A DNA stretch of 64,000 nt from Halobium salinum (lineage in GTDB: Archaea > Halobacteriota > Halobacteria > Halobacteriales > Haloferacaceae). The stretch's first letter is position 1. Each line of letters starts with the position of its first letter. Both the position numbers and the translations under genes were made by a program. The stretch lies in contig NZ_JAODIW010000009.1 in the NCBI RefSeq assembly GCF_026586625.1, positions 137,517-201,516 of the forward strand, in the 5' to 3' direction. Of the stretch, positions 3,249 to 52,863 are shown in pieces. A model generated the notes under the pieces. That model did no database searches and had not been told where the DNA came from. It saw nothing but the letters and a program-made list of their open reading frames with translations.

Positions 3249-4106
3249 ATGGAATCCACACAGCGTGACGAACGCGACCCGCGGACGGACGGGAGCGACC
3301 GGTCGGCCCGTGGTGACCCCGACCGGACCGACCGGGTCGACGGCGTCCGACGAACGATGCTCGGCGCCCTCGGCGTCCTCGGCGCCGGCCTCGTGTACCC
3401 CGGCCGTGCCCGCGGGGCGCCGGTCGCCGGGGGGAGCGCGAGGGGAGCGACCGGCGCTGACGGGACCGGCGGCGGGGCGAACCAGCGGGCGGCGACCCCG
3501 GTCGTCCGCGCGCTGGACGCGTTGGAGGAGTTGGAGCGGAGCCTCCGACAGACCGTGCGCGCGCTCGAGGCGGTGCTCGACGCCCTCGACGACGAGGCCG
3601 GGACGGTCGCGGGGGCGACGGACCGGATGCTGGACGCGGTCGAGCGGCTCGAGCGGACCCTCCGTGAGGTAGAGGACGCGGCCCGCCGCGACGCCGTCTC
3701 CCGCGGGGAGGCGCGCGCGGTGGCTCGCGACGGTATCGAAGGGGCGCAGGCGCGACTCGACTACGCGCTGGAGCTCGTCGCCGGCCCCGGCCCCGACGTG
3801 GAGGGCGAACTGGACGCCGTCGACGCCCGACTGTCGGCCGTCGAGGAGGAGATGGAGGACGCCCTCGACCAACTCGACGACGCCGCCCGGTGGACGGCCG
3901 ACCGGGGACAGGAGCGGACCCTCGACCGAGCGGCCCGGAGCGTCGACTACGCCTTCCGGAGCCTCGACGACGCCGAGCGGGCGGTCGAGGACGGCGACGC
4001 CGAGGACGCCCTGCGGACGCTCGACCGGCTCCGCGAGACGGTGTCGGCACACGTGGTCGACCTCCGCGAGACGGTGGAGCCGCCGGCCGGCGGGCAGTCG
4101 CGCTGA
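3249..4106 (+). CDS. Exported helical coiled-coil protein with Tat-like signal
   Basis: This 285-residue protein belongs to no family I can name. A polar N-terminus leads to VRRTMLGALGVLGAGLVYPG, a twin-arginine motif followed by a short hydrophobic core, so Tat export is likely. The mature part (about residue 85 onward) is almost entirely helical, with Leu, Val and Ala at heptad-like spacing and many Asp, Glu and Arg. No Cys and no catalytic motif are visible. An imperfect GTAAC/GTTAC dyad (3190-3202) lies just upstream. A protein of the same architecture is encoded at 26711-27520. A structural or surface-associated helical bundle is an inference. Confidence 0.7.
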   Translation: MESTQRDERDPRTDGSDRSARGDPDRTDRVDGVRRTMLGALGVLGAGLVYPGRARGAPVAGGSARGATGADGTGGGANQRAATPVVRALDALEELERSLRQTVRALEAVLDALDDEAGTVAGATDRMLDAVERLERTLREVEDAARRDAVSRGEARAVARDGIEGAQARLDYALELVAGPGPDVEGELDAVDARLSAVEEEMEDALDQLDDAARWTADRGQERTLDRAARSVDYAFRSLDDAERAVEDGDAEDALRTLDRLRETVSAHVVDLRETVEPPAGGQSR

Positions 4107-4185: not shown

Positions 4186-4206
4186 TATCGGTTATGTGAT
4201 GCTTAT
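4186..4206 (+). promoter_or_regulatory. Promoter of beta-repeat gene 1 (TATCGGTTAT element)
   Basis: TATCGGTTATGTGAT is followed by GCTTAT ending 42 bp before the ATG at 4249. The same 21-bp sequence occurs unchanged before the next paralogue (5316-5336), and related forms precede the others. CTTAT is the likely TATA element. Confidence 0.7.
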
Positions 4207-4248
4207 TGCGGAATCACGCCTCTGTACGGTAGGGATGTGAGAGAGACT

Positions 4249-4977
4249 ATGCGCGACTTCTCCAAGCGACAGTATCTGAAGTACGCCGGCCTCGGGCTGG
4301 CCGCGATGACCCTCGGGGTCGGGGGCACCGCCGGCTCCGTCGCCGCGCGCCACGGCGCTCCTGTGGACGCGCCCCTCGTGGCGCCGCAGTTCGACGGCCG
4401 CATCCTCGACTACGAGCGCGACGACGACGGCGAGGTGCAGTTCGACTTCCGCGGCATCCGCTTCCGCACCTCCGACGACGACATCGACCTCGACGACGTC
4501 GACAGCGGGGTCTCCTTCGAGACCAACCGCCGCGACGACCACCTGCAGCTGCTCGTCGACCGCGGCGGGGTCCAACTCGACCTCGACGTGGCGGACGACG
4601 GCGACCGCATCGACCTCACCATGGCCGTCGGCGACGAGTACCTCGACTTCGAGTTCGACGACCGCGACCGCGAGGTCGACCTCACCGTCTCCGGCAGCGG
4701 CGTCACCTTCGAGGACGCCAGCGCGCGCATCGAGTACCAGGGCGACGCCATCACCCTCGACTGGGACGGCGACGACGGCGACCTCGACATCAGCGGCGAC
4801 GTCTCGCTGCGCCTTCGCACCGACCGGCGCGACATCGACTTCGAGTACCGCGACGACGACGTCGCCGTCGACTTCCGCGACGAGGAGCTCGACTACGTGG
4901 GCGAGGACGTCACCATCGAGTGGCGGATGAACCGCGGCCGCCGGGACGACGACTTCGAGGCCCGCCTGCGCCGCTGA
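4249..4977 (+). CDS. Exported acidic beta-repeat protein, copy 1
   Basis: This 242-residue protein is the first of six paralogues in the region. It opens with a Tat-like leader, MRDFSKRQYLKYAG, in which Lys-Arg replaces the usual twin arginine, followed by a hydrophobic stretch to about residue 35. The mature part is a run of short alternating strands such as VQFDFRGIRF and IDLDDVDSGVSF, very rich in Asp and Glu, with no Cys. It ends DDFEARLRR, matching the C-terminal EFEAR motif of the family. The ATG at 4249 is preferred over an in-frame GTG at 4237 because it matches the start of the paralogues. Function is unknown. A secreted or cell-surface beta-solenoid-like or sheet protein is inferred. 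Confidence 0.8.
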   Translation: MRDFSKRQYLKYAGLGLAAMTLGVGGTAGSVAARHGAPVDAPLVAPQFDGRILDYERDDDGEVQFDFRGIRFRTSDDDIDLDDVDSGVSFETNRRDDHLQLLVDRGGVQLDLDVADDGDRIDLTMAVGDEYLDFEFDDRDREVDLTVSGSGVTFEDASARIEYQGDAITLDWDGDDGDLDISGDVSLRLRTDRRDIDFEYRDDDVAVDFRDEELDYVGEDVTIEWRMNRGRRDDDFEARLRR

Positions 4978-5315
4978 ACGCGCGGCCCGTCGGCCCGACG
5001 GGTGTCGACGCCGGTCGTCACCGCGTCGGCGTCGGCCGGCCCGCCCGCAGGCGTATCGGCGGTCACGGGACCGCCGACGCGCCGCCACGGCCGCCCGACC
5101 GGACTCCCCACCGCACCGCAGTCCTTCATCCGGCGTCCGGCCGGCCCCGTTACGTCCGGGACGCTACGCCACCCCCGAGTGACGACGCCACCCAAGCGTG
5201 GCCCGAGTGAGATAATACAGAAACTACCACCAGTCAGTGGAATTCCAAGAGGATTTGATGCCTCATTCGTGTGATTCCTCAACTTTTCCGGTTTCTTCGA
5301 GGACGCAACGCAACG

Positions 5316-5336
5316 TATCGGTTATGTGATGCTTAT
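5316..5336 (+). promoter_or_regulatory. Promoter of beta-repeat gene 2
   Basis: The 21 bp are identical to 4186-4206 and end 41 bp before the ATG at 5378. Flanking sequence has diverged, so the element looks conserved by selection. Confidence 0.75.
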
Positions 5337-5377
5337 GTCCCCATCACGCGTCAGTAGTAGTGGAGAGAAGAACAGCT

Positions 5378-6073
5378 ATGACGCAGAACAGCAAGCGACA
5401 GTTCCTGAAGTACGCCGGTGCCGGCCTGGCCGTCTCGGCGATCGCCCTACCGGGCACGGTGAGTGCCGCCGCGCCCGCCCCGACGGCCGCCCCGCAGGTC
5501 AGCCCGCGCCGCGGCGACCGCCTCGACTACGAGCGCGACCGCGACGGCAACGTCGAGTTCGAGGCCTACGGCGTCTCCTTCGAGTCCGACGACGGCGACA
5601 TCGAACTCCAGGACGACGACGTAGACTTCGAGACGAACGACGACCGCGACGAGCTCGAGCTGACCATCGACAACGGGAACGTCCAGCTCGACCTCGAGAT
5701 GAGCGACCGCGGCGACCAGGTGGAGCTCACCCTCGCCGTCGGCGGCGAGTACATCGACTTCGAGGTCGACGGACTCGCCATCGAGTTCGAGGCCATCGGC
5801 GACGCCGGGCAGTTCGAGGACGACGGCGAGATTCAGTACGACGGGGAGGCCATCAGCTTCGAGTGGGACGCCGACAGCAACCAGCTGGAAATCTCCGGCG
5901 ACGTCGAGCTCGAACTCGAGGTCGACCGCGGCGACCTCAACTTCGAGTACAGCGACGGCGACGTCTCCATCGACTTCGACGACGACGAACTCGAGTACGA
6001 GGGCCGCGACGTCTCCCTCGAGTGGGAGTTCGAGAACGGCGACCGCGACTCCTTCGAGGCTCGGCGCCTCTGA
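5378..6073 (+). CDS. Exported acidic beta-repeat protein, copy 2
   Basis: This is a 231-residue paralogue of the 4249 gene. The leader is MTQNSKRQFLKYAGAGLAV, again with Lys-Arg, and a probable cleavage region lies near VSAAAPAP. The mature domain starts with GDRLDYERDRDGNVEF. Strands rich in Glu and Asp follow, alternating every two residues with Phe, Leu, Ile or Val, including GGEYIDFEVDG and FEAIGDAGQFEDDGEIQYDG. The protein ends DSFEARRL. There is no Cys and no catalytic motif. The start is chosen at the ATG at 5378 because it fits the paralogues; a GTG at 5360 is the alternative. It probably forms an extended acidic beta structure outside the cell. Confidence 0.8.
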   Translation: MTQNSKRQFLKYAGAGLAVSAIALPGTVSAAAPAPTAAPQVSPRRGDRLDYERDRDGNVEFEAYGVSFESDDGDIELQDDDVDFETNDDRDELELTIDNGNVQLDLEMSDRGDQVELTLAVGGEYIDFEVDGLAIEFEAIGDAGQFEDDGEIQYDGEAISFEWDADSNQLEISGDVELELEVDRGDLNFEYSDGDVSIDFDDDELEYEGRDVSLEWEFENGDRDSFEARRL

Positions 6074-6473
6074 GCCGCCGACCGTGTCGGCCTCGATGCG
6101 TCGGGCCCCAGCGCCCGTCGCCTCCCGCCCCTTCGACCGTCCGTCACTACCGACCGCCGTGTCGTGACCGGCGGCTTCCGGACAGCGTTCCCCCGAGCGG
6201 CAGCCACCTCGGTGCGACCGTTCCCCTTCACGACCCGTTCCCGACGCCACGAGCCCTCCTGCTCGTTCCCGTGCGCGTGAGAGCACAAATCGAACGAAAT
6301 CGTCGGAAATCGTCGAGCCGAACCGAGGCCGTCGCCTCCGAGCGGACCGTCGGCCTCGCCGCCGGGCGTCGGCCCCGTCTCTGGAGAGCCTCTCGGGGCG
6401 GGTTCGCCGGCCGCTGACCCCCTGTGATTCCGGGCTCCACACCACCCCGCCACTTCGCGGTAAGGCGCCTACG
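6074..6473. other. Intergenic, no gene seen
   Basis: About 400 bp between beta-repeat copies 2 and 3. Open frames here have no recognisable motif or gene-like composition. Confidence 0.4.
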
Positions 6474-6495
6474 TATCGGTTATCTGACTGTTTAT
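6474..6495 (+). promoter_or_regulatory. Promoter of beta-repeat gene 3
   Basis: TATCGGTTAT is followed by CTGACTGTTTAT, which ends 36 bp before the ATG at 6532. It is one base longer than the versions at 4186 and 5316. GTTTAT is the likely TATA box. The surrounding 108 bp (6468-6575) recur at 8074-8181 with three mismatches. Confidence 0.75.
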
Positions 6496-6531
6496 CCCCG
6501 TCGCAGGCCTCGTAGTAGACGGAGTTAAGAG

Positions 6532-7251
6532 ATGAAGGACTTCTCCAAGCGACAGTACCTGAAGTACGCCGGCGCCGGGCTGGCGGCAGCCTCCCTCGGG
6601 ATCGGTGGGACGGTCGGAAGCGGCGCGCTCTCGAGCGTCGAGGGTGCGACCTCGTCCGGCGGCGCGGCCCCACAGAACGGGCGGCCGAGCAGCGGCGACC
6701 GCCTCGACTACGAACGCGTCGGCAACGACATCGAGTTCGACTACCTCGACGTGTCGTTCGAGTCCGACGACGGTGACATCGAGCTCAACGACATCGACCT
6801 CGACTTCGAGACCGACGGCGACAGCCTCGAGCTGACCATCAACACCGGGAGCGCCTCGGTCGACCTCGAGATGGACGACAACGGCGCGTCCGTCGAGCTG
6901 ACCATCAGTGTCGGCAGCGAGTACATCGACTTCGAGTCCGACGGCAACGACGTCGAGTTCGAAGCCATCGGCACCTCCGAGACGTTCGAGGACGACAACA
7001 ACGAGATCGAGTACAAGGGTGACAGCCTCCAGTTCGAGTGGGACGCCGACTCCCAGGAGCTGGACATCACCGGCGACGTCAGCCTCGAACTCAAGACCGA
7101 CGGCAGCGCCGACCTGGACTTCGAGTACCAGGACGACGACTTCATGATCGACTACGACACGACGGAGCTCGAGTACATGGGCCCCGACGTCTCCCTCGAG
7201 TGGGAGAACGGCGACGGCGACGACGACGAGTTCGAAGCCCGCCGGATGTAA
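6532..7251 (+). CDS. Exported acidic beta-repeat protein, copy 3
   Basis: This 239-residue paralogue has the leader MKDFSKRQYLKYAGAGLAA with a Lys-Arg Tat-like motif. A short Ser/Gly/Ala linker follows, then SGDRLDYERVGNDIEF. The repeat region continues with VSFESDDGDIELNDIDLDF, a GSEYIDFESDG strand pair, FEAIGTSETFEDDNNEIEY and LDITGDVSLEL, ending DEFEARRM. The regular alternation of acidic and hydrophobic residues suggests stacked beta-strands with one acidic face. No Cys or enzymatic motif is present. It and copy 4 share near-identical promoters and leaders. Function is unknown. Confidence 0.8.
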   Translation: MKDFSKRQYLKYAGAGLAAASLGIGGTVGSGALSSVEGATSSGGAAPQNGRPSSGDRLDYERVGNDIEFDYLDVSFESDDGDIELNDIDLDFETDGDSLELTINTGSASVDLEMDDNGASVELTISVGSEYIDFESDGNDVEFEAIGTSETFEDDNNEIEYKGDSLQFEWDADSQELDITGDVSLELKTDGSADLDFEYQDDDFMIDYDTTELEYMGPDVSLEWENGDGDDDEFEARRM

Positions 7252-7569
7252 GCCGACGAGTCGACCACCCCGCCGTGACGACCGCCGTCGGCGGTCGGCC
7301 ACGACGTATCCCCGAGCGCATCGACGGCTCGTACGTGGTTTCCCGCGGTTCGCACGCGGCTTTTCCGGCGTTCACACCACCGCACGCGGCCCTGACAGTC
7401 GACTCCGAGCGGTCCGCCGCTGGACGGTCTAGACAGGCGGTCCCCGGCGACCGGCTCCCGACCACTCCGGGCCCGTACTTTCGCTCTTTCCGAGTCGGAC
7501 GGCGTGTCCCCGTGTCTACTCACCCGTCCGTCACCTCGTTTCGTACTACTGGCACGTAACGCCGTTTCA
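7252..7569. other. Intergenic, no gene seen
   Basis: About 320 bp downstream of copy 3. No supported ORF or repeat was found. Confidence 0.35.
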
Positions 7570-7590
7570 TATAGGTCAGATGATACTTAT
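7570..7590 (+). promoter_or_regulatory. Promoter of the DUF7123 gene, related to the beta-repeat promoters
   Basis: TATAGGTCAGATGATACTTA plus T matches the 4186-4206 element at 16 of 21 positions without gaps. It lies about 122 bp before the ATG at 7713, so the message would have an unusually long leader. Confidence 0.5.
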
Positions 7591-7712
7591 GCCCGTTCCG
7601 AGCGAAGGTATCGACGAGGGACGGCGGGTCGGGACGGCGGGGCAGGTCGGCGGCGTCGGCGAGGCGTCGACGACGGACGGCCCGGACTCCGGCCCCCGTT
7701 GGGAGGACGAAC

Positions 7713-7976
7713 ATGAGCGCACCTGCACACACCGAGACGAAGGGAGTGAACGACAAACAGCGACGGATTCTCGAGTACCTCCTGGCCAACGCCGGCTCGC
7801 GGACCTACTTCAAGTCGCGGCTCATCGGCGAGGCCGTGGGGCTCTCCGCGAAGGAGGTCGGCGCGAACCTCGCGTTCATCCTGCAGAGCGGGGCCAACGA
7901 CGGGCTCGACATCGAGAAGTGGGGGTACTCCTCCGGGACCACCTGGAAGGTTACCCCGAGCGAACGGGGCGGGTGA
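7713..7976 (+). CDS. DUF7123-like small winged-helix protein
   Basis: This is an 87-residue protein. After a short polar N-terminus, KQRRILEYLLANAGSRTYF begins a helix-turn-helix-like fold, followed by KSRLIGEAVGLSAKEVGANL and a C-terminal IEKWGYSSGTTWKVTP. This 'YFKSRLIG...VGANL...WGYSSGTTWKVT' pattern is the haloarchaeal DUF7123 family as I recall it. It is probably a DNA-binding protein, though no target is known. It sits between beta-repeat copies 3 and 4 and has a related promoter, so it may share their regulation. A GAGGA sequence lies seven bases before the ATG and supports this start. Confidence 0.8.
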   Translation: MSAPAHTETKGVNDKQRRILEYLLANAGSRTYFKSRLIGEAVGLSAKEVGANLAFILQSGANDGLDIEKWGYSSGTTWKVTPSERGG

Positions 7977-8079
7977 GCGCGGTGCGGGCGGCCCTCCTTC
8001 TCGCGGTCGGTGGACGGTGGCCGTCACTCCGACACAACACCGACCGGTAAGTCACCTACCTCCGCCACAACGGCCTACG

Positions 8080-8101
8080 TATCGGTTATCTGACCGTTTA
8101 T
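8080..8101 (+). promoter_or_regulatory. Promoter of beta-repeat gene 4
   Basis: TATCGGTTAT followed by CTGACCGTTTAT, ending 36 bp before the ATG at 8138. It differs from the gene 3 promoter at one base. Confidence 0.75.
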
Positions 8102-8137
8102 CCCCGTCGCAGGCCTGGTAGTAGACGGAGTTAAGAG

Positions 8138-8818
8138 ATGAAGGACTTCTCCAAGCGACAGTACATGAAGTACGCCGGCGCTTCGCTGGCGGCGCTCTCC
8201 CTCGGAATCGGTGGGAAGATGGCGACGGAGGGCAGCGGTGCCCCCGCGAGAGTCGACGTCGGCGGCGGTGGCGGCGGCTCCACCCCCGCGGTCAGCGGCG
8301 GTGACGGCGGCGACGTCGCCCCCGAGGTCGGCACCGGCGGCGACGCGCAGCCCCAGAGCTCGCGTCCCCGCAGCGGCGACCGCCTCGACTACGAGCGCGA
8401 CGACGACGGGAACATCGAGTTCACCTGGAACGACGTGGACTTCGAGACGAAAGACGACAACCAGAACGTCGAACTCACCGTCAACAGCGGCGACGTGACC
8501 CTCGACCTCGAGACGGACAACGCCGGACAGGACGTCGAAGTCACCCTCTCGGTCGGCGGCGAGTACGTCGACCTCGAAGTCGACGGCGACGACCTGGAGT
8601 TCGAAGCTATCGGCAACTCCGAGACGTTCGAGGACGACAGCGACGAGATAGAGTACAAGGGCGACGCCATCGACCTGGAGTGGGACGACGACGCCCGCGA
8701 GATCGACATCACCGGCGACGTGATGCTCGAGTACGACGGCGACGAGCTGGAGTACCGCGGCACCGAGGTCCACCTCGAGTGGGAAGTGGGCGGCGAGTTC
8801 GAGGCCCGGCTCCTCTGA
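8138..8818 (+). CDS. Exported acidic beta-repeat protein, copy 4
   Basis: This 226-residue paralogue has the leader MKDFSKRQYMKYAGASLAA. A Gly-rich linker follows (VDVGGGGGGSTPAVSGG, about residues 40-70), and the domain begins SGDRLDYERDDDGNIEF. Strand motifs include WNDVDFETKDD, GGEYVDLEVDG, FEAIGNSETFEDD and IDITGDVMLEY, and the protein ends GGEFEARLL. It lacks one strand block near the C-terminus that copies 1 to 3 have. The long linker before the acidic domain could be a spacer through the cell envelope (inference). No Cys and no enzyme motif were found. Confidence 0.8.
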   Translation: MKDFSKRQYMKYAGASLAALSLGIGGKMATEGSGAPARVDVGGGGGGSTPAVSGGDGGDVAPEVGTGGDAQPQSSRPRSGDRLDYERDDDGNIEFTWNDVDFETKDDNQNVELTVNSGDVTLDLETDNAGQDVEVTLSVGGEYVDLEVDGDDLEFEAIGNSETFEDDSDEIEYKGDAIDLEWDDDAREIDITGDVMLEYDGDELEYRGTEVHLEWEVGGEFEARLL

Positions 8819-9217
8819 GGAGCCGACCGAGTCCGAGCGCCACGTCGCTCTACGCCCCCGGCGTCGACACCGACACCACCGCTCCCGTCGGCGCCGACAC
8901 CGGCACCGCCTCCACCGTCGGCGCCGACACCCGCGCCGGCGCGTCCGGCGGCCGGGAGACGCCCGCCCGGAACGAAACGGGCGGAGTAGAACGGAACGCT
9001 GTTTTCTCGCACCCGTCGACCAGGCGCCACTACGGGCCGCGTCCGACCGGCGGGCGACCCGCCGCGGTCGCGCCCGAGCCGACCGGCCGCCGGGCTGTCG
9101 GACCGACCGGGTCGACGGTCGGCGACGCCGGGTCGCCCGCCAGGGATGCCGTGTCGCCTGTCAACGGGATACAGTTATGCGCGTGGAGCGAGGAGTAGAT
9201 AGGAGGGGAGGGCGGGT
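8819..9217. other. Intergenic with a duplicated 12-bp palindrome
   Basis: GTCGGCGCCGAC, a perfect palindrome, occurs at 8887-8898 and again at 8917-8928, exactly 30 bp apart. A TATA-like AGTTATG (9173-9179) and purine-rich ribosome-binding sequence precede the next gene. No gene is seen. Confidence 0.4.
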
Positions 9218-11821
9218 ATGAAAGACGAGCAGGACTCGGGAGGGCGGAGGCGGCGAGACGAGCGAGTGACCGCCGACGCCCCGCCCGGCGGGGTCGAACG
9301 GACCGAGACCCTCGAGCGCCTCGGGACTCCGGCGAGCGTCGGGGCGTCCGACGGGCGGAACGACCACCCCGGACCGAAACCCGACGCCGACGCGCTCGCC
9401 GACCTCTATCGGACCGTGTTCGAGGCCGCCGACGACGGCGTGCTGCTCGTCGACGTGGCCGCCGACGCGTTTCTGACCGCCAACCCCCGTGCCTGCGACC
9501 TACTCGGCTACCCGGACGGGGAACTCGTCGACGTGTCGCCCACGACCGTCCACGCCGACGACGTCGCGCGCTACCGCGAGTTCGTCGCGAACGCGCTCCG
9601 CGCGGGCGACGGCTGGACCGAAGAGCTCACCTGCACCCGACGGGACGGCTCGACGTTCGTCGCGGAGGTCGCCGCGAGCGTCGTCGACGTGCGCGGACGG
9701 ACGTACCTGCTCGCCCTGTTGCGCGACACGACCGACCGGCGCGCCTTCGAGCGCGAGCTGGCCGACCGGTGGCTCGCCGTCGACGCCGCGACCGAGGGCA
9801 TCGCCCAGCTCGACGTCGACGGGGAGTTCACGTACGTCAACGGCGCGTTCGCCGCGCTGTTCGGCTACGCCCGTGACGCCCTGCTCGGACAGGGGTGGCA
9901 GGGGCTGTACGACGAGGCGACACAGGAGCGGTTCAGCAACCAGACCCAGCCGGCGCTGTTCGACATCGGGAGCTGGCGCGGGGAAGCGGTGGGCGTCAGA
10001 GCCGACGGGACGACGTTCCCCCACGAGCTCTCGCTCACCGCCCTCGACGACGGGGGCGTGCTCTGTATCGTCCGCGACGTGAGCGAGCGCCGCCGGCGCG
10101 AGCGCCAGCTCGAGGCGCTGAGCGAGGTGTCGGGCTACCTGCTGACGGCCGGCTCGACCGGCGAGATTGGCGAAATCGCCGTCGCGGCCGTCGAGGAGCT
10201 GCTCGGCTACTCGCTGGCCGGGGTGGCGATGTACGACGCCGAGACGGACAGCCTCGAGCTGACGGCGCTCTCCCGGGAGCTGGACCGTGTCATCGACCCG
10301 CTCGACCCGCCCGACTCCTTCGACGTGGAGGGAACCGAGGTCGGGCAGGCGTACAGGGGCGGCAAGCCCACCGTCACGCTCGTCGGCGAGGACGACCCGC
10401 TGAGCCAGACACCCATCACGCAGGTGCTGCTCGTCCCGCTCGCCGAACACGGTATCCTCGGCGTCGGTACCTACGGCGACGAGGGGTTCGACCGCTCGGA
10501 CGTGGCCCTCCTCGAGGTGCTGGCGGCGAACGTCGCCGCCGCGCTCGGCCGGGCCGGTCGCGAGGCGGAGCTGACGGCCGCCCGGACCGAACTGGCGGCC
10601 CAGCGCGACGAACTGCTCGAACAGCGCGACGCCCAGCGGACCCTCCTCGACGTGAGCGCGCTCGCGCGCGAGGTCGTCGACGGCGTCGTCGACGCGCGCT
10701 CGCGGGCCGACATCGAGCGCGTCGTCTGTGAGCGCCTCGCCGCATCGGAGCTGTACCACTTCGCGTGGATCGGCGAATACAGCGCCGACCGTGGCCGCAT
10801 CGTCCCCCGGGCCGGGGCGGGCGTCGGGCCGAGCCTCCTCGACGAAATCGCGGACATCGTCGTCACCGAGGGGGCCCGCGGGGCGGCGGACGTGGCCGTC
10901 GAGACCGGCGAGGTGCAGGTCGTCCGCGGCATCGGCGAGGTCGACCGCCTCCACGAGCCGGTGCGCCGCGAGGCGCTCGAACGCGGGTTCGAGGCCGCCA
11001 TCGCGGTGCCGCTCAGCTACCACGGACGCGACTACGGCGCGCTCGTCGTCGTCGCGGGCCGCGAGGACGCCTTCGACGAGTACGAACTCGCGACCTTCGA
11101 GATGCTCGGCGACCTGGTCGGGTTCACGCTCCGCGCGGAGAACGACCGGAACCTCCTCTACGCCGACAGCGTCGTCGAGGTCGAGGTCCGAAGCACCGAC
11201 CGGAGCTCCTTCTTCGTCGACGCCGCCTCCAGTCTGGGCTGCCGGATGCGCTTCGTCGGCATCGTCCCGACCGACGAGGGTCACCAGAAGCTGTACGCCC
11301 TGCTCGAAGGAGCGACCGTCGACGGGCTGGCCGAGTTCGCGACCGGCATGCCCCACGTCCGGGCGGTCGAGGCCATCGACGAGAACGCGGTGGACTCGCT
11401 GGTCGTGGTGACGCTGTCGGGCGGGTCCATGACCTACGACCTGACCGAACGGGGTGCACACATCCTCGACGCCGAGGTGGACTCGACCGGGACCCGGCTC
11501 CGCTTCGAGGTACCCTCGCGCGACGACGCCCGGAGCGTCGTCGAGGCGTTCCTCGACACCTACCCCGACACCACGGTCGTGGCCATCCGCGAGCAGGACC
11601 GGCCGGTGCGCTCGCTGTCGGAGCTCCGCGGACAGTTCCTCGGGAGTCTCACCGAACGCCAGCGCACCTGTCTCACGAGCGCCTACCTCGAAGGCTACTA
11701 CGACTGGCCGCGACGCAGTAGCGCCGAGGAGGTCGCCGCCCGCCTCGGCATCTCCTCTGCGACGTTCCACCAGCACGTCCGGCTCGCCGAGGAGAAGCTC
11801 CTGCGTGCGCTCCTCGACTGA
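9218..11821 (+). CDS. PAS/GAF sensor with bacterio-opsin activator HTH
   Basis: This 867-residue regulator is of the haloarchaeal Bat type. In order it has a disordered acidic N-terminus, a PAS domain (about 65-180), a second PAS domain (about 185-295) and a GAF domain (about 300-450). A short coiled coil (450-475) leads to a second GAF domain (about 490-650). A bacterio-opsin-activator domain (about 660-800) and the C-terminal HTH_10 follow. The last contains LTERQRTCLTSAYLEGYYDW and ATFHQHVRLAEEKLL. It should sense a ligand, redox state or light and act at promoters. There is no kinase domain. A GGAGGGGAGGG tract before the ATG supports the start. It lies inside the beta-repeat cluster and is a candidate regulator of it. 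Confidence 0.88.
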   Translation: MKDEQDSGGRRRRDERVTADAPPGGVERTETLERLGTPASVGASDGRNDHPGPKPDADALADLYRTVFEAADDGVLLVDVAADAFLTANPRACDLLGYPDGELVDVSPTTVHADDVARYREFVANALRAGDGWTEELTCTRRDGSTFVAEVAASVVDVRGRTYLLALLRDTTDRRAFERELADRWLAVDAATEGIAQLDVDGEFTYVNGAFAALFGYARDALLGQGWQGLYDEATQERFSNQTQPALFDIGSWRGEAVGVRADGTTFPHELSLTALDDGGVLCIVRDVSERRRRERQLEALSEVSGYLLTAGSTGEIGEIAVAAVEELLGYSLAGVAMYDAETDSLELTALSRELDRVIDPLDPPDSFDVEGTEVGQAYRGGKPTVTLVGEDDPLSQTPITQVLLVPLAEHGILGVGTYGDEGFDRSDVALLEVLAANVAAALGRAGREAELTAARTELAAQRDELLEQRDAQRTLLDVSALAREVVDGVVDARSRADIERVVCERLAASELYHFAWIGEYSADRGRIVPRAGAGVGPSLLDEIADIVVTEGARGAADVAVETGEVQVVRGIGEVDRLHEPVRREALERGFEAAIAVPLSYHGRDYGALVVVAGREDAFDEYELATFEMLGDLVGFTLRAENDRNLLYADSVVEVEVRSTDRSSFFVDAASSLGCRMRFVGIVPTDEGHQKLYALLEGATVDGLAEFATGMPHVRAVEAIDENAVDSLVVVTLSGGSMTYDLTERGAHILDAEVDSTGTRLRFEVPSRDDARSVVEAFLDTYPDTTVVAIREQDRPVRSLSELRGQFLGSLTERQRTCLTSAYLEGYYDWPRRSSAEEVAARLGISSATFHQHVRLAEEKLLRALLD

Positions 11822-12010
11822 CGCCACGGGAGGTTCGACACAGAACGGGGTTACGCGGTCGAAACCTACGGCTCTAGGGGCGATTTCTCGGATCGTTGAC
11901 CGACCGTGTCGGCTGTCACCTACCCGCGTAGGCCGCTAACTTTCGTCCGTTTGGGGAGTAGTATACGTGAGGGGAGGCCCACTGATGACGACGAACGGAG
12001 GGAAGTTCTG

Positions 12011-12469
12011 ATGGAACGCGACTTCGACTTCACCCGCACGGTCGGGATCGAAGGCGAGAAGAGACAGGAGACGACGGGGGGAAGAAGCGAGTACGTCGAA
12101 CTCGAGTACGCCGAGTCCCACACCGAGACGGAGCCGACCGGGTTCGGCCACCCGAGCCCGGCACAGCTCCAGGAGGGGTTCACCACGGTGGCGACCCTCA
12201 TCGGACGCAAGTGGCACCTGGTCATCCTCGACCAGCTGCTAACGACCGGCCCACTCGGCTTCAGCGCACTGCTACGGCGCATCGACGGCATCTCGAGCAA
12301 GGTGCTCTCGGAGAGCCTGACCGACCTCGAGGAGAACGGGTTCATCTCGCGGACGGTCGTCTCCGACCGCCCGTTCCGCGTCGAGTACGCCATGACGAAC
12401 CGGGGGTACTCCCTCCGGCCCGTCCTGGACGCCGTCCGCGTCGGCTTCGACGACGGCGTCGACCGCTGA
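12011..12469 (+). CDS. HxlR-family helix-turn-helix regulator
   Basis: This is a 152-residue winged-helix protein. Residues about 60-145 carry the HxlR signature: LIGRKWHLVILDQLLTTGPL, then FSALLRRIDGISSKVLSESL, DLEENGFISRTV and the wing PFRVEYAMTNRG. The N-terminal 55 residues are polar and specific to this copy. The ATG at 12011 is chosen over an upstream GTG at 11906 because GGAGGG lies eight bases before it. The gene converges on a second HxlR gene (12803-13210) whose DNA-binding core is very similar. No Cys is present, so thiol sensing is unlikely. Targets are unknown. Confidence 0.85.
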   Translation: MERDFDFTRTVGIEGEKRQETTGGRSEYVELEYAESHTETEPTGFGHPSPAQLQEGFTTVATLIGRKWHLVILDQLLTTGPLGFSALLRRIDGISSKVLSESLTDLEENGFISRTVVSDRPFRVEYAMTNRGYSLRPVLDAVRVGFDDGVDR

Positions 12470-12637
12470 CGGCGGCGACGCCGACGCCCGGCCCGGTCGG
12501 TCGGCACGGGTCGAATCGACTCGGCTGGGCGGCCGCGGCACGCTCCCTACTTTCTCTCTCGATTACATCCCGAGCGACACAGACACACCGACGACGGGAG
12601 CGGACGCTCGCTCACGCGCAGACCGGACACTAGACAC

Positions 12638-12685
12638 CGGATAGACACGGTATCGGATAGACACGACACCGGATAGCGCCGGGTT
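12638..12685. repeat. 16-bp direct repeat between converging HxlR genes
   Basis: CGGATAGACACG recurs at 12638 and 12654 and begins again, diverged, at 12670, giving a strict 16-bp period. The 12470-12802 spacer contains nothing else recognisable. Confidence 0.5.
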
Positions 12686-12802
12686 CGTCGGGGGCCGGCG
12701 CGGGACAGCCGCCCAAAAGAGGACACCGAGTCGGCCGGGGCGGGACCCCACGGCCCGTCCGGCCGGTCGTCGTTCGGGGTCGAGGCGCGTTCGGCCGGTC
12801 GT

Positions 12803-13210
12803 TCAGCCGCTTCGGACGACCGGCTCCCGCTCCTCGCGCCGTTCGTACTCCTCCTCGGCCTCCGGTGGGAGGAGGTACTCGATGCTCCACGCGGCGAGGC
12901 TCTCGACGGTCGGCCGGAGCGCCTCGCCCTGCTCGGTCAGCGAGTACTCCACCCGGAACGGCTTGTCGCTGATGACGCGCCGGGTGACTACCCCCAGTTC
13001 CTCCATCTCGGCGAGGTTCTCGGAGAGCACCTTGCTGGAGATGCCCGAGATTTCGGTCTGGAGGGCGCTGAACCCGAGCGGCCCCTCGTTCAGTAGCCGG
13101 TGGATTATCACCGGACGCCACTTCTTGCCCACGATGTCCGCCGCGGCGGTGATGGGACACCAGTCTTCGCCCGCACACCATCGCTCGGCGGTGTCGCTAC
13201 GCTTGCCCAT
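12803..13210 (-). CDS. HxlR-family helix-turn-helix regulator
   Basis: This 135-residue protein is a standard-length HxlR regulator. IVGKKWRPVIIHRLLNEGPL, then FSALQTEISGISSKVLSENL and KPFRVEYSLTEQGEALRP give the complete winged helix. The N-terminus has two Cys residues (CAGEDWC), of which the second occupies the position of the redox-sensing Cys found in many HxlR proteins. The C-terminal tail is acidic and ends in Arg/Glu repeats. The ATG at 13210 is well placed. It diverges from beta-repeat gene 5 (13438), whose promoter it could control. Confidence 0.87.
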   Translation of the reverse strand: MGKRSDTAERWCAGEDWCPITAAADIVGKKWRPVIIHRLLNEGPLGFSALQTEISGISSKVLSENLAEMEELGVVTRRVISDKPFRVEYSLTEQGEALRPTVESLAAWSIEYLLPPEAEEEYERREEREPVVRSG

Positions 13211-13392
13211 ACAGTTCCAACCTAGCGTGGGGGGTACAAAACCGGTGCCCGCTTGTGCGGAGGTGTGACATAGTCCCTGCGGTCGTTATTACACCCGCCG
13301 TGTCCGGTCACTCAGCTAGGAACCCACGGGTAACCCCGCTCCACGGGCGTAGTGACCGTACCGCCTCCGCGCCGCGTTACGTGCAGGTCGTA

Positions 13393-13403
13393 TGACAGTT
13401 TAT
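13393..13403 (+). promoter_or_regulatory. Promoter of beta-repeat gene 5
   Basis: TGACAGTTTAT ends 34 bp before the ATG at 13438. It matches TGACTGTTTAT and TGACCGTTTAT of genes 3 and 4. The upstream TATCGGTTAT half is not preserved (GTCGTA instead). Confidence 0.6.
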
Positions 13404-13437
13404 CGGGGCCGCGGGCGTACAGGCTTCTGAGAAGAGC

Positions 13438-14163
13438 ATGGCGGACATCACCAAGCGGGACTACCTCAAACTGACCGGCGTATCGCTCGGGGCCGTCGCC
13501 CTCGCATCGGGCGGGCTCGTCGTAACGAACGCCGGGACGGCCCTCGACGCCGAGGCTGCGGTCTCGCCGCCGTCGCCCGGCGTCGCCGGACGCGTCGCGC
13601 CACCCGCCTCGGACCCGGGCGTCGAGGCCGACGTCGACGGCGACGAGATACACGCGGAGATCGAAGGCGCCGGCGACGGTGACGCCCAGCCCCAGCGGGC
13701 GGGACCCCGGAGCGGCGACCGCCTCGACTTCGAGCGCGACGCGGACGGCGACATCGAGTTCACCTGGGAGGGCGTCGACTTCGAGACGAAGGACGGCGAC
13801 CGGGACATCGAGTTCCGGGTCGACGAGGACGGCGTCGTCCTCGACCTCGAGACGCGAAACGGCTGTCGCGACGTCGAGCTGACCCTCTCGGTCGACGGCG
13901 AGTACATCGACTTCGAGGCCGACGGCGAGGACGTCGAGTTCGAGGCGGTCGGCGCGTTCACCAGCTACGAGACCGACGACGAGGAGATCGAGTTCGACGG
14001 CGACGCCATCCGGTTCGAGTGGGACGGCGTTCCCGGCGACCCCGAACTCGACGTCACCGGCGACGTGCTGCTCGAGGTGAACCGCGACGAACTGGAGTAC
14101 CGCGGCACCGCGGTCCACCTCGAGTGGGAGCGCGGCGGCGAGTTCGAGGCCCGACTGCTCTGA
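13438..14163 (+). CDS. Exported acidic beta-repeat protein, copy 5
   Basis: This is a 241-residue paralogue. The leader MADITKRDYLKLTGVSLGA again has Lys-Arg. A long Pro/Ala/Asp linker (about 40-95) precedes SGDRLDFERDADGDIEF. The repeat domain has WEGVDFETKDGDRDIEF, DGEYIDFEADG, FEAVGAFTSYETDD, LDVTGDVLLEV and the end GGEFEARLL. A single Cys (NGCRDVEL) is unique to this copy. It is closest to copy 4, sharing the GDAQPQ linker and the C-terminal third. The stop is followed after 13 bp by the coiled-coil gene at 14177, so they are probably co-transcribed with the DUF63 gene behind it. Confidence 0.8.
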   Translation: MADITKRDYLKLTGVSLGAVALASGGLVVTNAGTALDAEAAVSPPSPGVAGRVAPPASDPGVEADVDGDEIHAEIEGAGDGDAQPQRAGPRSGDRLDFERDADGDIEFTWEGVDFETKDGDRDIEFRVDEDGVVLDLETRNGCRDVELTLSVDGEYIDFEADGEDVEFEAVGAFTSYETDDEEIEFDGDAIRFEWDGVPGDPELDVTGDVLLEVNRDELEYRGTAVHLEWERGGEFEARLL

Positions 14164-14176
14164 GGAGCCAGCCACC

Positions 14177-15163
14177 ATGACCACACACCGAGACGACACC
14201 CGCGAGGAGGAGGAGGACAGCCTGTTCGAACGGTTCCACGACCGGCTCGTGGGACGCCCGCGCGAGTTCGGCGGCCGGGTCGAGGGGAACGGGGCCGAAC
14301 GGAACGGGGAGGAACACGACGACGGACGACGGGTCGACGCCGCTCTCGGCGGGACCGGCGCCCTCGTCGCCGAGACGGTCGCGACCGACGACGACACCGG
14401 AACCGCGAACCGCGCCGACCCGGTGGACGGAACGGGTGGCGCGGGCGACGGCGCCTCGGCGGCGACGGGCGACCGCGACGCCGGCGACGACCGACCGAGT
14501 CGGCGCTCGACCGCGACGGCCGAGCGCTCGACCGACGGGCTGGCCGAGGCGCTCGCGGCCGAGTTGGCGGCGGGCGAGGTCGACGAGGACACCAGACGCC
14601 GGCTGGCGGCCGGGCTCCGCGCCGGTCTCGACACGCCGACGCGGGTCCGGCTCGACCAGCTGAGCGCGCGCGTCGCCGAGCTCGACGCGTACGCCGACGC
14701 GCTGGAGACGGTGCTCGAGCGGGTCGGCACCGACGACGACATCGTCGAACGCTTCGAGCGCCTCGCGGCCGAGACGGCGGCGGTCGAGCGCGGCGCCCGC
14801 GAGGAGCGGACCCGTGTCCGGGCCGACCTCGACGAGGTGACCGACGACATCGCGTCGCTCCGGACCGAGGTCGACGAGCGGGTCGCCGGGGCCGACACGC
14901 TCGGAGACGAAGTCGACACACTCCGTGCCGGCCTCGACGAACTGACCGACGAGACCGACGCGCTCCGGAGCGACTTCGACGACCTCGCCCGCGAGACCGG
15001 CGCGCTCCGGGCCGAGGTGGCGACGCTCCACGAGTGGCGCCGCCAGCTGACCGGCGCCTTCGTCACCGACGGCGGCGCGTCGGTCTCCGACGGCGCCGAG
15101 GTTCTCGACGGGACCGACGCCGTTGTCGGCGACGACGGTGCCTGGAGGACTGACCGCGAGTGA
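14177..15163 (+). CDS. Acidic coiled-coil protein of unknown function
   Basis: This 328-residue protein is not assigned to a family. Residues 1-120 are polar and disordered. About 125-290 form a long heptad coiled coil with LDQLSARVAELDAYADALE and repeated 'LDELTDETDALRSDFDDL' units. The last 35 residues are again disordered. There is no signal peptide, membrane helix or Cys, so it is probably cytoplasmic. It lies 13 bp after beta-repeat gene 5, and the next gene begins within 30 bp, so the three form an operon. A scaffold or membrane-associated adaptor role is possible but speculative. Confidence 0.75.
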   Translation: MTTHRDDTREEEEDSLFERFHDRLVGRPREFGGRVEGNGAERNGEEHDDGRRVDAALGGTGALVAETVATDDDTGTANRADPVDGTGGAGDGASAATGDRDAGDDRPSRRSTATAERSTDGLAEALAAELAAGEVDEDTRRRLAAGLRAGLDTPTRVRLDQLSARVAELDAYADALETVLERVGTDDDIVERFERLAAETAAVERGAREERTRVRADLDEVTDDIASLRTEVDERVAGADTLGDEVDTLRAGLDELTDETDALRSDFDDLARETGALRAEVATLHEWRRQLTGAFVTDGGASVSDGAEVLDGTDAVVGDDGAWRTDRE

Positions 15164-15192
15164 GCGCCGCAGACGTACACCGAGGAGACGAC

Positions 15193-16329
15193 ATGGAGAC
15201 GAGACAGCGCGAGTTCGACGGGTTCTCGGCGTGGGTAGCCGCCGCGGTCGTGGCGGCGGTCGCCCTCGCCGGGGGGATGGTACTTAGACCGAGAGCGGTG
15301 TTCGACCGGTTCCTCTGGCAGGACTTCGTCGGCCCGCTCCAGGCGGAGGCGTTCGGCGCACAGTGTGCGATTCTGCTCCAGGGCGGGGCGTTCCGAGCGG
15401 TCGGTACGGAGGCCTGTGCGACCGCCGTCGCCGAAGGCCGGCTCGTCGCCGCGGCGGGGGCCACCCCCGTCTCGGCGGTCGGCTACGCGGCCGGCCTCCT
15501 CTTTCTCCTGCTCGGGGGCGCCCTCCTCCTGAAGCGCCTCCGACTCGTCGACGGCCGACGGTTCTTCTACGCCGTCCTGCCGTTTCTCGTCCTCGCCGGC
15601 GCGCTGTTGGCTGTCCGCGACGCGACGGCCGCCCTCCCGCGCGGGCCGGCCGGACTGCTCGGCTACCCCGCGGGGCTGTTGCTGACGACGCCGGCCGTGT
15701 ACGCGCTCGCGGTCGTCCTCCCGGTCGTCGCTCTCGCGGTCGGCGCCGCGCTCCAGCGGCGCGGGCGCGTCGAGCGCTACGAACACGTCTCGACGACCGT
15801 CGCGGTCGGCCTGTTCGGACTGGCCGTCGGCGGGGTGGGGTCGCTCGCCTACCGGACCGAGGGGATGGGACTCCACCTACAGGGGGTCCCCGCGCTGCTC
15901 GTGGCGACCACCGCGCTCGCCATCGTGACGTGGCTGGCGGTCGCCCGCGTCTTCCCGGGCGTCGTCGCCCGAATCGGCTCGATGGGGCTGGTCGTCCTCT
16001 GGGCGTACCTCCTCCACGGGTTGGTGGTCGTCGTCGCCGCCGACTGGGCCGCCGAACTCGGCTTCGCCGCGGCCCGACCCGTCGACGGGCTCGTCCGGGT
16101 CGTCGCCGACGTCACCGCGACGGCGCTCCCCGCGTCGGTGGCGGCCGTGACGAAGCTCGCGTGGCCGTTCCTCCTCCTCCAGGTCGCGGTCGCGCTCGTC
16201 GTCGCCGCCAGCTTCGAACGCGAGCTGGTCCGCGAGGACGAACTCGCCCTGCTGTTGCTCGTCGCGGTGTTCGGCGTCGCGCTGGTGCCGGCCGTCCACG
16301 GGCTGCTGCGGCTCGCCATCGGCATCTGA
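15193..16329 (+). CDS. DUF63 family membrane protein (divergent)
   Basis: This is a 378-residue membrane protein with about nine hydrophobic segments. It shows the DUF63 order: RPRAVFDRFLWQDFVGPLQA near the N-terminus, then RRFFYAVLPFLVLAGALLAV, and a later VLWAYLLHGLVVVVAADWAA where the conserved His sits in a membrane helix. It is longer than the DUF63 protein at 2209-3099. The ATG at 15193 is preferred because GGAG precedes it by a few bases. An in-frame GTG at 15160 overlaps the stop of the upstream gene as GTGA and is the alternative. It is the third gene of the beta-repeat copy 5 operon. Confidence 0.8.
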   Translation: METRQREFDGFSAWVAAAVVAAVALAGGMVLRPRAVFDRFLWQDFVGPLQAEAFGAQCAILLQGGAFRAVGTEACATAVAEGRLVAAAGATPVSAVGYAAGLLFLLLGGALLLKRLRLVDGRRFFYAVLPFLVLAGALLAVRDATAALPRGPAGLLGYPAGLLLTTPAVYALAVVLPVVALAVGAALQRRGRVERYEHVSTTVAVGLFGLAVGGVGSLAYRTEGMGLHLQGVPALLVATTALAIVTWLAVARVFPGVVARIGSMGLVVLWAYLLHGLVVVVAADWAAELGFAAARPVDGLVRVVADVTATALPASVAAVTKLAWPFLLLQVAVALVVAASFERELVREDELALLLLVAVFGVALVPAVHGLLRLAIGI

Positions 16330-16501
16330 GCCGAGCGCCGACGTTTCCCTTCTCCGCTCGCTCCCCCGTGCCGAGCGGCCGCCGCCCGCGGCACGTCGCG
16401 TCGGAGGTGACACTCGGCCCGCCGCCACTCCGCGGCGTGGTCGTGGTCGTACTAGTCGTGCTGAAACAGTCGAGGACGGAGAACAGCGTGAGAACCCGAG
16501 C

Positions 16502-17173
16502 TCAGACGACGCGGCGCGCCTCGAGGTCCCGGGAGTCGCGGTCGTAGCGAACCTGCAGCATCCGGTTCTGGGTGCGGAACCGACGACTGTTCGACCGGAC
16601 GTCCTCGTCGAAGTCGCGGAAGTCGCTGTCGCCGATGCCGTCGAAGTCGAAGCGGAGATCGCCGTCTATCTCGACGCGCCGCCCGCGCTGACGGAACCGG
16701 AACCGACGACCGACGTAGTCGATGTCGTCGTCGCCGTCGTCCTCGAACGTCGAGTCGCCGCCCTCGACCCGGAACTCGTTGTCGACCCCGTCGAAGTCGC
16801 TGTCGATGCGCTCGCCGGCGAGGTCGAGTCGGGTACGAATCCGCGGCTCGGTGATTTTGAAGTCGAACGGGTCGGGGAGCCCGCCGAACCCGAACCGGGT
16901 GAACCGGACGCGGCCGACGCTCGGGCGCTCGTCACAGCGCAGCGTGGGGCTCACGAAGTCGAAGTCGTCGCCGCGGGTCCGAATCCGCGTCCCCGACTCG
17001 GGGTGGTCGAACCGAATGTCGCCGTTCTCGTCGCGGTCGAAGTCCAGGAAGTCGCCGGCGCTCGGCACGCCGCCCGGACCGGCCTGTCCGACCGTACTCC
17101 CCACTGCGAGGGGGAGCGCCGCGGCGGCCGCGCCGGCCGCGACGAGGTAGTCACGTCGGGATAGTCTGTGCAT
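16502..17173 (-). CDS. Exported acidic beta-repeat protein, divergent copy 6
   Basis: This 223-residue protein is a distant member of the same family. The leader MHRLSRRDYLVAAGAAAAA has a true twin arginine. The mature part begins AGDFLDFDRDENGDIRFDH, parallel to GDRLDYERDxDGxIEF. It continues with short acidic strands, contains STFEDDGDDDIDYVGRRFRF (like FEDDxxEIEYKG) and ends RDLEARRVV. Arg content is higher than in copies 1 to 5, and one Cys is present. It is on the opposite strand and closes the cluster. The promoter (17208-17218) resembles those of copies 3 to 5. Function is unknown. Confidence 0.75.
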   Translation of the reverse strand: MHRLSRRDYLVAAGAAAAALPLAVGSTVGQAGPGGVPSAGDFLDFDRDENGDIRFDHPESGTRIRTRGDDFDFVSPTLRCDERPSVGRVRFTRFGFGGLPDPFDFKITEPRIRTRLDLAGERIDSDFDGVDNEFRVEGGDSTFEDDGDDDIDYVGRRFRFRQRGRRVEIDGDLRFDFDGIGDSDFRDFDEDVRSNSRRFRTQNRMLQVRYDRDSRDLEARRVV

Positions 17174-20941: not shown

Positions 20942-21111
20942 CCCCGTTCTCGAACCGTCCTCTCGAACCCGGTCGCCGTCCCGTCGCGGCCGTCCGCTCC
21001 CACCGGCGTCGGGGTACGCCGCCGTAACGTCGGTACGACGCCGGGAGCGAGTTACGTACCAGTCGAATGGACGATATATCTCCGGCGAGCCTATCTTCCG
21101 GAAGAGACACC

Positions 21112-45497: not shown

Positions 45498-45591
45498 AGT
45501 GCGTGTGCTGGGAACGCGGCCCGGTCGGGGTGACGGCGGCGTCACGTTTCGACCGGCCACGTCGCTCTGTTGGTCGTCCGTGGTCGAGGGG

Positions 45592-45916: not shown

Positions 45917-45952
45917 GGGGGGTAACACCTTCGTCCGGGCAAGGAACAAAGC

Positions 45953-46825: not shown

Positions 46826-46838
46826 GTCGACGGGGCGG

Positions 46839-52861: not shown

Positions 52862-52863
52862 CT

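What the first reader, a model, noticed from the sequence alone, without database searches (positions are those of the whole stretch)
4249..17173. Six-member family of exported acidic beta-repeat proteins in one cluster
Six genes within 13 kb encode 220-242-residue proteins made of short Asp/Glu-alternating strands. They share a Tat-like leader, a GDRLDYER-type entry motif and an EFEAR-type C-terminal motif. I recognise no named family. The acidic alternation suggests stacked beta-strands, perhaps a solenoid that binds cations or water at the cell surface. The conserved last residues (FEAR followed by R or L and a hydrophobic residue) could be an assembly or sorting signal. Local amplification with conserved promoters argues for dosage or variant selection.
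Basis: partly seen in the sequence, partly recalled or inferred. Interest (0 to 1): 0.85.

Follow-up and report, generated by a model that had tools for sequence, protein, structure and literature searches.

The report
Haloarchaeal tandem exported acidic beta-sheet proteins
A salt-loving archaeon carries six neighbouring genes for small, exported, mostly very acidic sheet-shaped proteins that sit behind their own private promoter element and regulators, in a gene cluster shared very patchily with a few distant relatives; it is probably a mobile kit for coating the cell surface or building an extracellular matrix, but its function is untested.

Summary
In detail: six homologous genes (A–F) encode 223–242-residue exported proteins with shared entry and C-terminal motifs, and no others occur in the 4.46-Mb genome. 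F is a divergent, Arg-rich, near-neutral branch.

The thing is larger than reported. The array lies in a ~20-kb cluster colinear with clusters in two genomes of another haloarchaeal family and shared, rearranged, with a Halomarina plasmid: TFB, DUF63, DUF7123, beta-array, Bat-type PAS/GAF/HTH10 regulator, two HxlR regulators, E-type beta-protein, second DUF63, subtilase, PadR (last two not in the Halomarina stretch). Only 5 of 392 sampled class genomes clearly have the family.

A promoter element (GTWATNTGAYNNYTNAT-like) is private to it: all 15 exact genome-wide matches in three genomes lie 38–58 bp upstream of these genes.

A confident AlphaFold model of copy C shows about 20 short strands; the best fold matches are antiparallel meanders (OspA, CPAP TCP domain), not beta-helices. 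One sheet face is hydrophobic (48/58), the other acidic (37/60). The Pfam DUF4097/Toastrack label is marginal and fails profile and fold tests.

Best reading: regulated, horizontally spread, Tat-exported sheet proteins building a surface layer or matrix (inferred; 0.45).

The parts
4249..4977 (+). Copy A, acidic exported beta-protein, 242 aa, KR leader, C-end DDFEARLRR
5378..6073 (+). Copy B, 231 aa; the only copy over the Pfam DUF4097 cut-off (23.2 against 22.9 bits)
6532..7251 (+). Copy C, 239 aa; modelled: 20 short strands, one hydrophobic and one acidic face
8138..8818 (+). Copy D, 226 aa; lacks two interior hairpins present in A-C; promoter and leader nearly identical to C
13438..14163 (+). 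Copy E, 241 aa, TKRDYLKL leader and long linker; positional counterpart of L106_4940 and L059_244
16502..17173 (-). Copy F, 223 aa, divergent Arg-rich branch with RR leader; closest to chromosomal L062_9371 (Halomarina) and L102/L103 homologues
4191..4207 (+). Promoter element of A (GTTATGTGATGCTTATT), starting 58 bp before ATG
5321..5337 (+). Promoter element of B (GTTATGTGATGCTTATG)
6479..6495 (+). Promoter element of C (GTTATCTGACTGTTTAT)
8085..8101 (+). Promoter element of D (GTTATCTGACCGTTTAT)
13376..13409 (+). Degenerate promoter element of E, best matrix match at the same offset (-62), low score
849..1811 (+). TFB-type basal transcription factor, 66-69% identical to the TFB in the other clusters
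2209..3099 (-). DUF63 membrane protein 1
3249..4106 (+). Alpha-helical, probably exported protein; no homologue found in the other clusters
7713..7976 (+). DUF7123 small protein (helix-turn-helix-like), 64-78% identical in the other clusters
9218..11821 (+). Bat-type regulator: PAS and GAF domains, BAT and HTH_10
12011..12469 (+). HxlR-type regulator a
12803..13210 (-). HxlR-type regulator b, with conserved Cys (WCPIT)
14177..15163 (+). Coiled-coil protein between E and DUF63-2; L107_16235 holds the same place and a similar N-terminus (by eye)
15160..16329 (+). DUF63 membrane protein 2
18267..20339 (-). Exported subtilase (Peptidase_S8), 47-52% identical to subtilases of the related loci
20642..20941 (+). 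PadR regulator, 66-69% identical in G384 and G318
21067..21864 (+). Membrane-anchored protein, 35% identical to L024_20888 of the Halomarina cluster
21923..23521 (-). Second subtilase, paralogue of 18267-20339

Best explanation
The six genes are the product genes of a horizontally spread haloarchaeal cluster (on a plasmid in at least one case) that makes a surface layer or extracellular matrix. Each product is exported folded by the Tat pathway, possibly staying tethered by its leader. It folds into a meander of short antiparallel strands with one hydrophobic and one acidic face. The hydrophobic faces are buried against each other (sandwich, rolled sheet or face-to-face dimer), leaving hydrated acidic faces outward. 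The conserved first strand (LDYER) and last strand (EFEAR-R/L), the two sheet edges, join subunits edge to edge. The array is switched on as a unit from a private promoter element, most likely read by the cluster's own regulators (Bat-type sensor, HxlR pair, PadR) and perhaps its own TFB. The co-encoded subtilase would process or remodel the product. Shown: homology, amplification, shared cluster, promoter uniqueness. Predicted by model or sequence: fold topology, face separation, Tat leader. Inferred: horizontal spread, tethering, polymerisation, matrix role, regulator-to-promoter link, protease role.
For: Colinear cluster in the window and G384 across families: TFB 69%, DUF63 56%, DUF7123 78%, Bat 47%, HxlR 69% and 59%, subtilase 51%, PadR 66%; much of the same gene content on Halomarina plasmid NZ_CP100452.1. 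All 15 genome-wide matches of the promoter element in G000, G384 and G318 lie 38-58 bp before beta-genes, on the gene strand; backward-pattern control 0. Arrays of 6 in the window and 9 in a tandem run in G318 and G384, about 11 copies in each of those genomes, expanded separately by lineage. AlphaFold with only five sequences: 139 residues at pLDDT >=90, pTM 0.73; meander folds lead the PDB matches. Face split 48/58 hydrophobic against 37/60 acidic. Edge strands most conserved (LDYER 3.65 bits, FEAR 3.97, mean 2.73) and length variants differ by interior strand pairs 4-5 and 16-17. Leader-to-domain spacer 31-147 residues, often Gly/Pro/Ala-rich. Extra TatA and TatC genes near two of the clusters.
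Against: No experiment shows surface location, polymerisation or regulation. All PDB fold matches have E > 0.001 and low TM-scores (0.11-0.26), so only local topology is supported and the closure of the sheet is unknown. A free edge-to-edge sheet sits awkwardly with a fully hydrophobic face. F is near-neutral and Arg-rich and its model is poor (pLDDT 47.6), so it may do something else. G318 and G384 have KR leaders but only one TatC locus each, so the link to a dedicated Tat is not general. The Halomarina copies lack the exact promoter element. No lipobox or C-terminal anchor was seen, so the proteins may simply be released.
Confidence: 0.45

Rival explanations
1. Exported carriers of a hydrophobic ligand: the amphipathic meander closes into a flattened barrel or clam with a hydrophobic interior and acidic exterior that carries lipids, quinones or pigments; multiple copies give different specificities.
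For: The near-perfect hydrophobic face (48/58) must be buried and could line a cavity; meander barrels (VDAC, FABP) appear among the weak fold matches; copies diverge in the body while C and D keep promoter and leader nearly identical.
Against: Whole interior hairpins are gained and lost between copies, which is hard for a closed barrel; no biosynthetic or transport genes recur in the cluster; the most conserved parts are the edge strands.
Confidence: 0.15
2. Protease partners: the proteins are inhibitors, chaperones or decoy substrates of the co-encoded exported subtilases, controlled by the same regulators.
For: A subtilase recurs in the loci of the window, G384, G318 and G037; F and its Halomarina homologue L062_9371 each neighbour a subtilase gene; small exported beta-proteins are common protease inhibitors (general knowledge).
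Against: Six to eleven copies against one or two subtilases; no subtilase in the Halomarina plasmid stretch; L102/L103 F-like genes have no recognised subtilase beside them; nothing resembles a reactive-site loop.
Confidence: 0.15
3. Toastrack/DUF4097 envelope-stress proteins (LiaG-like): a haloarchaeal version of Psp/Lia-type sensing with right-handed beta-helix domains coupled to transcription factors.
For: Copy B just passes the DUF4097 gathering score (23.2 against 22.9 bits) and the Halomarina homologue is annotated as DUF4097 family; Toastrack genes often sit beside PadR-type regulators (PMC11237479); this cluster has PadR and HxlR genes.
Against: In the whole-genome scan every match to the six copies is below the cut-off while three other loci pass it; profile comparison with two genuine DUF4097 proteins of the same genome gives 0.3% probability; no beta-helix among the fold matches; Toastrack is described as intracellular, these are exported; no PspA, PspC or LiaF-like gene was identified in the cluster.
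Confidence: 0.1
4. Variable surface antigens or competition factors (for example archaeocin- or virus-escape-related) kept as a diversifying repertoire.
For: Lineage-specific amplification with conserved promoter and leader and divergent body; very patchy distribution.
Against: No immunity gene, silent cassettes or invertible promoters were seen; A-D each have their own intact promoter and frame; no relatives found in phage or viral collections.
Confidence: 0.15

Closest known systems
Toastrack / DUF4097 (PF13349; LiaG, YvlB)
   Same: Beta-strand-rich, short repeats, alternating residues; often encoded near small transcription factors; marginal HMM match of copy B.
   Different: Toastrack is a right-handed beta-helix described as intracellular (PMC11237479); here the predicted topology is an antiparallel meander, exported, with no significant profile match to genuine members.
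CPAP/Sas-4 TCP (G-box) domain
   Same: About 20 consecutive antiparallel strands in one meander (PMC3776556); Foldseek probability 0.96.
   Different: TCP lacks a hydrophobic core, both faces are solvent-exposed, and it belongs to a cytoplasmic eukaryotic protein; here one face is hydrophobic, the other acidic, and the protein is exported. TM-score only 0.24; no homology claimed.
OspA of Borrelia and engineered OspA sheets
   Same: Surface protein with consecutive antiparallel hairpins; best Foldseek E-value (5.8e-3); engineered OspA sheets are lengthened by hairpins (general knowledge), as these proteins vary by hairpins.
   Different: OspA is a lipoprotein with globular caps (general knowledge); E-value and TM-score do not support relationship.
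Bat-type regulators of haloarchaea (PAS-GAF-BAT-HTH_10)
   Same: The cluster regulator has exactly this architecture.
   Different: Linked to a beta-protein array, HxlR regulators and a private promoter element rather than to bacteriorhodopsin genes.
Long acidic repeat proteins beside HxlR and Bat genes (Haloferax mediterranei pHME505; G408; G037)
   Same: Exported, D/E-alternating strands, same types of regulator and, in G037, a subtilase.
   Different: Up to about 510 aa, Sec-like leaders, more regular repeats; the loci of H. mediterranei and G408 also hold one short Tat-type member each, not an array.

Membership tests
DUF4097 / Toastrack (PF13349) | Score above the curated Pfam cut-off | tested here: inconclusive
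   Only copy B passes (23.2 against 22.9); C and D below it, A, E, F no match; in the whole-genome scan all matches to the six are below it.
DUF4097 / Toastrack (PF13349) | Profile-profile similarity to genuine members | tested here: not met
   hhalign of the family profile against two genuine DUF4097 proteins of the same genome: probability 0.3%, 18 columns; a reversed control on a similar alignment scored 0.2%.
DUF4097 / Toastrack (PF13349) | Right-handed beta-helix fold | tested here: not met
   AlphaFold model; the top 50 PDB matches are mainly meander sheets, propellers and barrels, none a beta-helix by its description. Rests on a prediction.
[quoted passage not shown]
   Pfam scans of 13 window cluster genes found none; the Halomarina annotation has none.
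Tat substrates | S/T-R-R-x-F-L-K motif, hydrophobic stretch, cleavage site | tested here: inconclusive
   RR in F and several homologues; K-R in A-E at the same place. Pfam/NCBIfam Tat models match B and F below their cut-offs. Export itself not testable here.
CPAP TCP / single-layer meander sheet | About 20 consecutive antiparallel strands, no hydrophobic core | tested here: inconclusive
Bat-type regulator (for 9218-11821) | PAS/GAF, BAT (PF15915) and HTH_10 (PF04967) domains | tested here: met
   BAT 1.2e-34, HTH_10 2.1e-19, PAS and GAF domains.
Subtilase S8 (for 18267-20339 and 21923-23521) | Peptidase_S8 domain with catalytic D, H, S motifs | tested here: met
   (2e-60, 3e-59); VVDSGID, HGTHCAG and SGTSM motifs in the translations.

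The most novel reading that the evidence does not exclude
A self-contained mobile haloarchaeal system that builds an extracellular beta-sheet polymer: arrays of Tat-exported amphipathic meander proteins that lengthen by whole hairpins and assemble by their conserved edge strands, expressed through a private core promoter read by a dedicated TFB and Bat/HxlR regulators, and partnered with exported Arg/Tyr-rich polycations that carry a similar YERDxDG beta motif (L108, L109).
Probability: 0.2. Interest if true: 0.85.

Novelty: new variant of a known kind. Interest (0 to 1): 0.6.

Why it matters
Archaeal cell surfaces and biofilm matrices are poorly known at protein level. This is an uncharacterised family with a confident, unusual predicted topology, amplified in arrays and carried by a patchily distributed cluster. 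The promoter element, unique to these genes in three genomes, together with a cluster-borne TFB, gives a clean and testable case of whether an accessory archaeal TFB or a Bat regulator serves one dedicated regulon. Haloferax mediterranei, a culturable species, carries a related locus, so function can be tested directly.

Tried and rejected
Pattern-based searches of genome contigs and viral contigs found no relatives, and the phage collection none. Weak profile hits in same-family genomes cover mainly the leader; the one checked (L020, G078) is an unrelated Tat protein. DUF4097 membership was considered and rejected (in some template frames were wrongly picked, corrected). Beta-solenoid was rejected on the fold search. 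LptA, T2SSN and DUF945 matches are weak and below cut-off; treated as chance from the shared strand pattern. The AlphaFold model of F failed (pLDDT 47.6) and was not used. No paper on the family or cluster was found; the full-text library cannot exclude papers outside it. Orthology of E with L059_244/L106_4940 rests on position and leader; the mature domain of E groups with D instead.
Full report
Observation. The window lies at G000:C14:137517-201516 of a 4.46-Mb haloarchaeal genome. They align over their length, and a profile of them finds exactly six full matches in the genome. F is the doubtful one. A profile built without F or its closest kin still scores F 37.6 bits without its leader, against at most 5.4 for shuffles that keep composition or alternation, so F belongs. 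It is, however, nearly neutral (net −6) and Arg-rich, while A–E carry −35 to −58.

Relatives. tblastn of plasmids found a Halomarina sp. BCD28 plasmid (99% coverage, 53% identity) and Haloferax mediterranei pHME505 (29%). A profile search of 392 genomes of the class gave clear members in only five: G000, G318, G384, G408 and G412. G412 is Halomarina BCD28, by identical coordinates. G318 and G384, two of six sampled species of one genus in another family, hold about eleven copies each, nine of them in one tandem run in each. Nothing convincing was found in the other 170 genomes searched of the window's own family; G037 there has only long acidic repeat proteins. A tree shows separate expansions: two well-supported clades contain only G318/G384 rows (98/97 and 100/100), apart from window and Halomarina copies. 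The pattern is rare, patchy and amplified in place. Two carriers are annotated plasmids; the others lie on contigs whose nature was not tested.

The cluster. Gene order in G384 (L060 and L106) is TFB, DUF63 (reverse), DUF7123, nine beta-genes, Bat-type regulator, HxlR a, HxlR b (reverse), beta-gene with TKRDYLKL leader, DUF63 no. 2, subtilase (reverse), PadR. The window reads TFB 849, DUF63 2209 (reverse), A–C, DUF7123 7713, D, Bat 9218, HxlR a 12011, HxlR b 12803 (reverse), E 13438 (TKRDYLKL), coiled coil 14177, DUF63 no. 2 15160, F, subtilase 18267 (reverse), PadR 20642. The order agrees across families with 47–78% identity for most shared genes (DUF63 no. 2 lower, 37%). The one shift is DUF7123, which lies before the array in G384 and inside it here. 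G318 has the same genes in mirror orientation. The Halomarina plasmid has most of the same genes in another order, without the subtilase and PadR. Domain assignments are from Pfam. H. mediterranei, G408 and G037 have related loci with HxlR genes (and Bat-type genes in H. mediterranei and G037) beside longer acidic repeat proteins.

The promoter. Upstream of A–D lies GTTATNTGAYNNTT, four matches in 64 kb (one mismatch allowed) against 0.09 expected from shuffles. With a longer pattern the whole genome has three matches, all here. A slightly different pattern gives 2, 7 and 6 matches in G000, G384 and G318; every one lies 38–58 bp upstream of a beta-gene on its strand, and the backward control gives none. 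A matrix from the clear cases, scored on sequences not used to make it, puts its best match at nearly the same offset (−61 to −64) for E, F and three G384 genes, though E and F score low. The element ends in a TTTAT/TTAAT that could be the TATA box, so a dedicated TFB or an overlapping regulator are both possible readers; that is inference. Halomarina copies lack the exact element, but two of them share a GTTACG...ACTTAT stretch. In the C–D pair, about 100 bp around the start codon are 92–96% identical, falling to 57% upstream and 50–84% in the body: promoter and leader are homogenised or constrained while the body diverges.

The protein. AlphaFold with the five window copies A–E gave 139 of 239 residues at pLDDT >=90 and pTM 0.73, a low-confidence leader and linker (1–49), and about 20 strands of 3–8 residues mostly joined by short turns. 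No PDB match has E <= 0.001. The leading ones are OspA variants, and the CPAP TCP domain has the highest probability listed (0.96). The TCP domain is described as a single-layer sheet of about 20 consecutive antiparallel strands without hydrophobic core (PMC3776556). TM-scores are low (0.11–0.26), so only local meander topology is supported. Splitting each strand into its two faces gives 48 of 58 hydrophobic on one and 37 of 60 acidic with 4 hydrophobic on the other; because the face was chosen per strand by hydrophobicity this is somewhat favourable, but the split is extreme. The sheet must bury that face, so it is unlikely to be a free single layer like TCP. Length variants (for example D against C) differ by strand pairs 4–5 and 16–17, that is, whole interior hairpins, while the first and last strands are most conserved. 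This suggests that sheet edges matter, as for edge-to-edge joining; it is an inference.

Export. A–E have K-R instead of R-R in an otherwise Tat-like leader; F, H. mediterranei and several others have R-R at the same place, so the leader is most simply a KR variant of a Tat signal. No lipobox or C-terminal anchor was seen. The spacer between leader and domain varies from 31 to 147 residues and is often Gly/Pro/Ala-rich, which would fit a tether through the S-layer (inference). G000 has a second set of Tat genes just upstream of the window (TatA, a double TatC and a further TatC), and the Halomarina plasmid carries its own TatC and TatA, but G318 and G384 have only one TatC locus each. A dedicated Tat is therefore a feature of two clusters, not of all.

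Known families. Pfam DUF4097/Toastrack is the only named family reached. It fails three of four features tested and is inconclusive on the fourth (description of Toastrack from PMC11237479). PDB sequences give nothing. The annotation 'DUF4097 family' on the Halomarina protein is therefore probably misleading.

Verdict. The best-supported mechanism is a regulated, exported, assembling sheet protein for a surface layer or matrix (0.45), with carrier, protease-partner and variable-surface rivals. The parts that are shown are the homology, the amplified arrays, the shared cluster and the unique promoter; fold topology is a good prediction; function is open.

Noticed in passing
L109 (G000:C14:120000-138500): 7542-7946, 13282-15492; and G000:C14:135854-136477: A second set of Tat translocase genes (TatA, double TatC, further TatC) about 1-10 kb upstream of the window, besides the locus on contig C11.
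   Followed up: partly
L108 3146-9835 (G384) and L109 12635-13159 (G000): Small Tat-type exported proteins with Arg/Tyr/Gly-rich or Arg-rich stretches, several followed by a short acidic beta segment with a similar YERDxDG motif; possible cationic partners of the acidic sheets; no Pfam match in the three scanned.
   Followed up: partly
L025 6283-10774 and 18150-21275; L063 908-5115; L100 5858-10806: Long exported proteins of regular D/E-alternating strands beside HxlR (and in L025 and L100 Bat-type) genes in H. mediterranei pHME505, G408 and G037.
   Followed up: partly
6482-6581 against 8088-8187: C and D share nearly identical promoter and leader start (92-96%) with sharply lower identity on both sides, suggesting gene conversion or strong local constraint.
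   Followed up: partly
18267-20339 and 21923-23521: Two paralogous exported subtilases on the minus strand, flanking the PadR gene and the 21067 gene.
   Followed up: no
26711-27520: A further probable exported alpha-helical protein, similar in style to 3249-4106; no homologue was found in the related clusters.
   Followed up: no
44427-62641: Genes that look, by eye, like surface-polysaccharide synthesis (nucleotide-sugar dehydrogenase, GlmS, flippase, nucleotidyltransferase) to the right of the cluster, plus another HxlR-like gene at 45953.
   Followed up: no
L024 (Halomarina plasmid) and L108/L060 (G384): RdfA-like genes near both clusters, and SMC-related genes (L024_1087, L060_461) beside them.
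   Followed up: no
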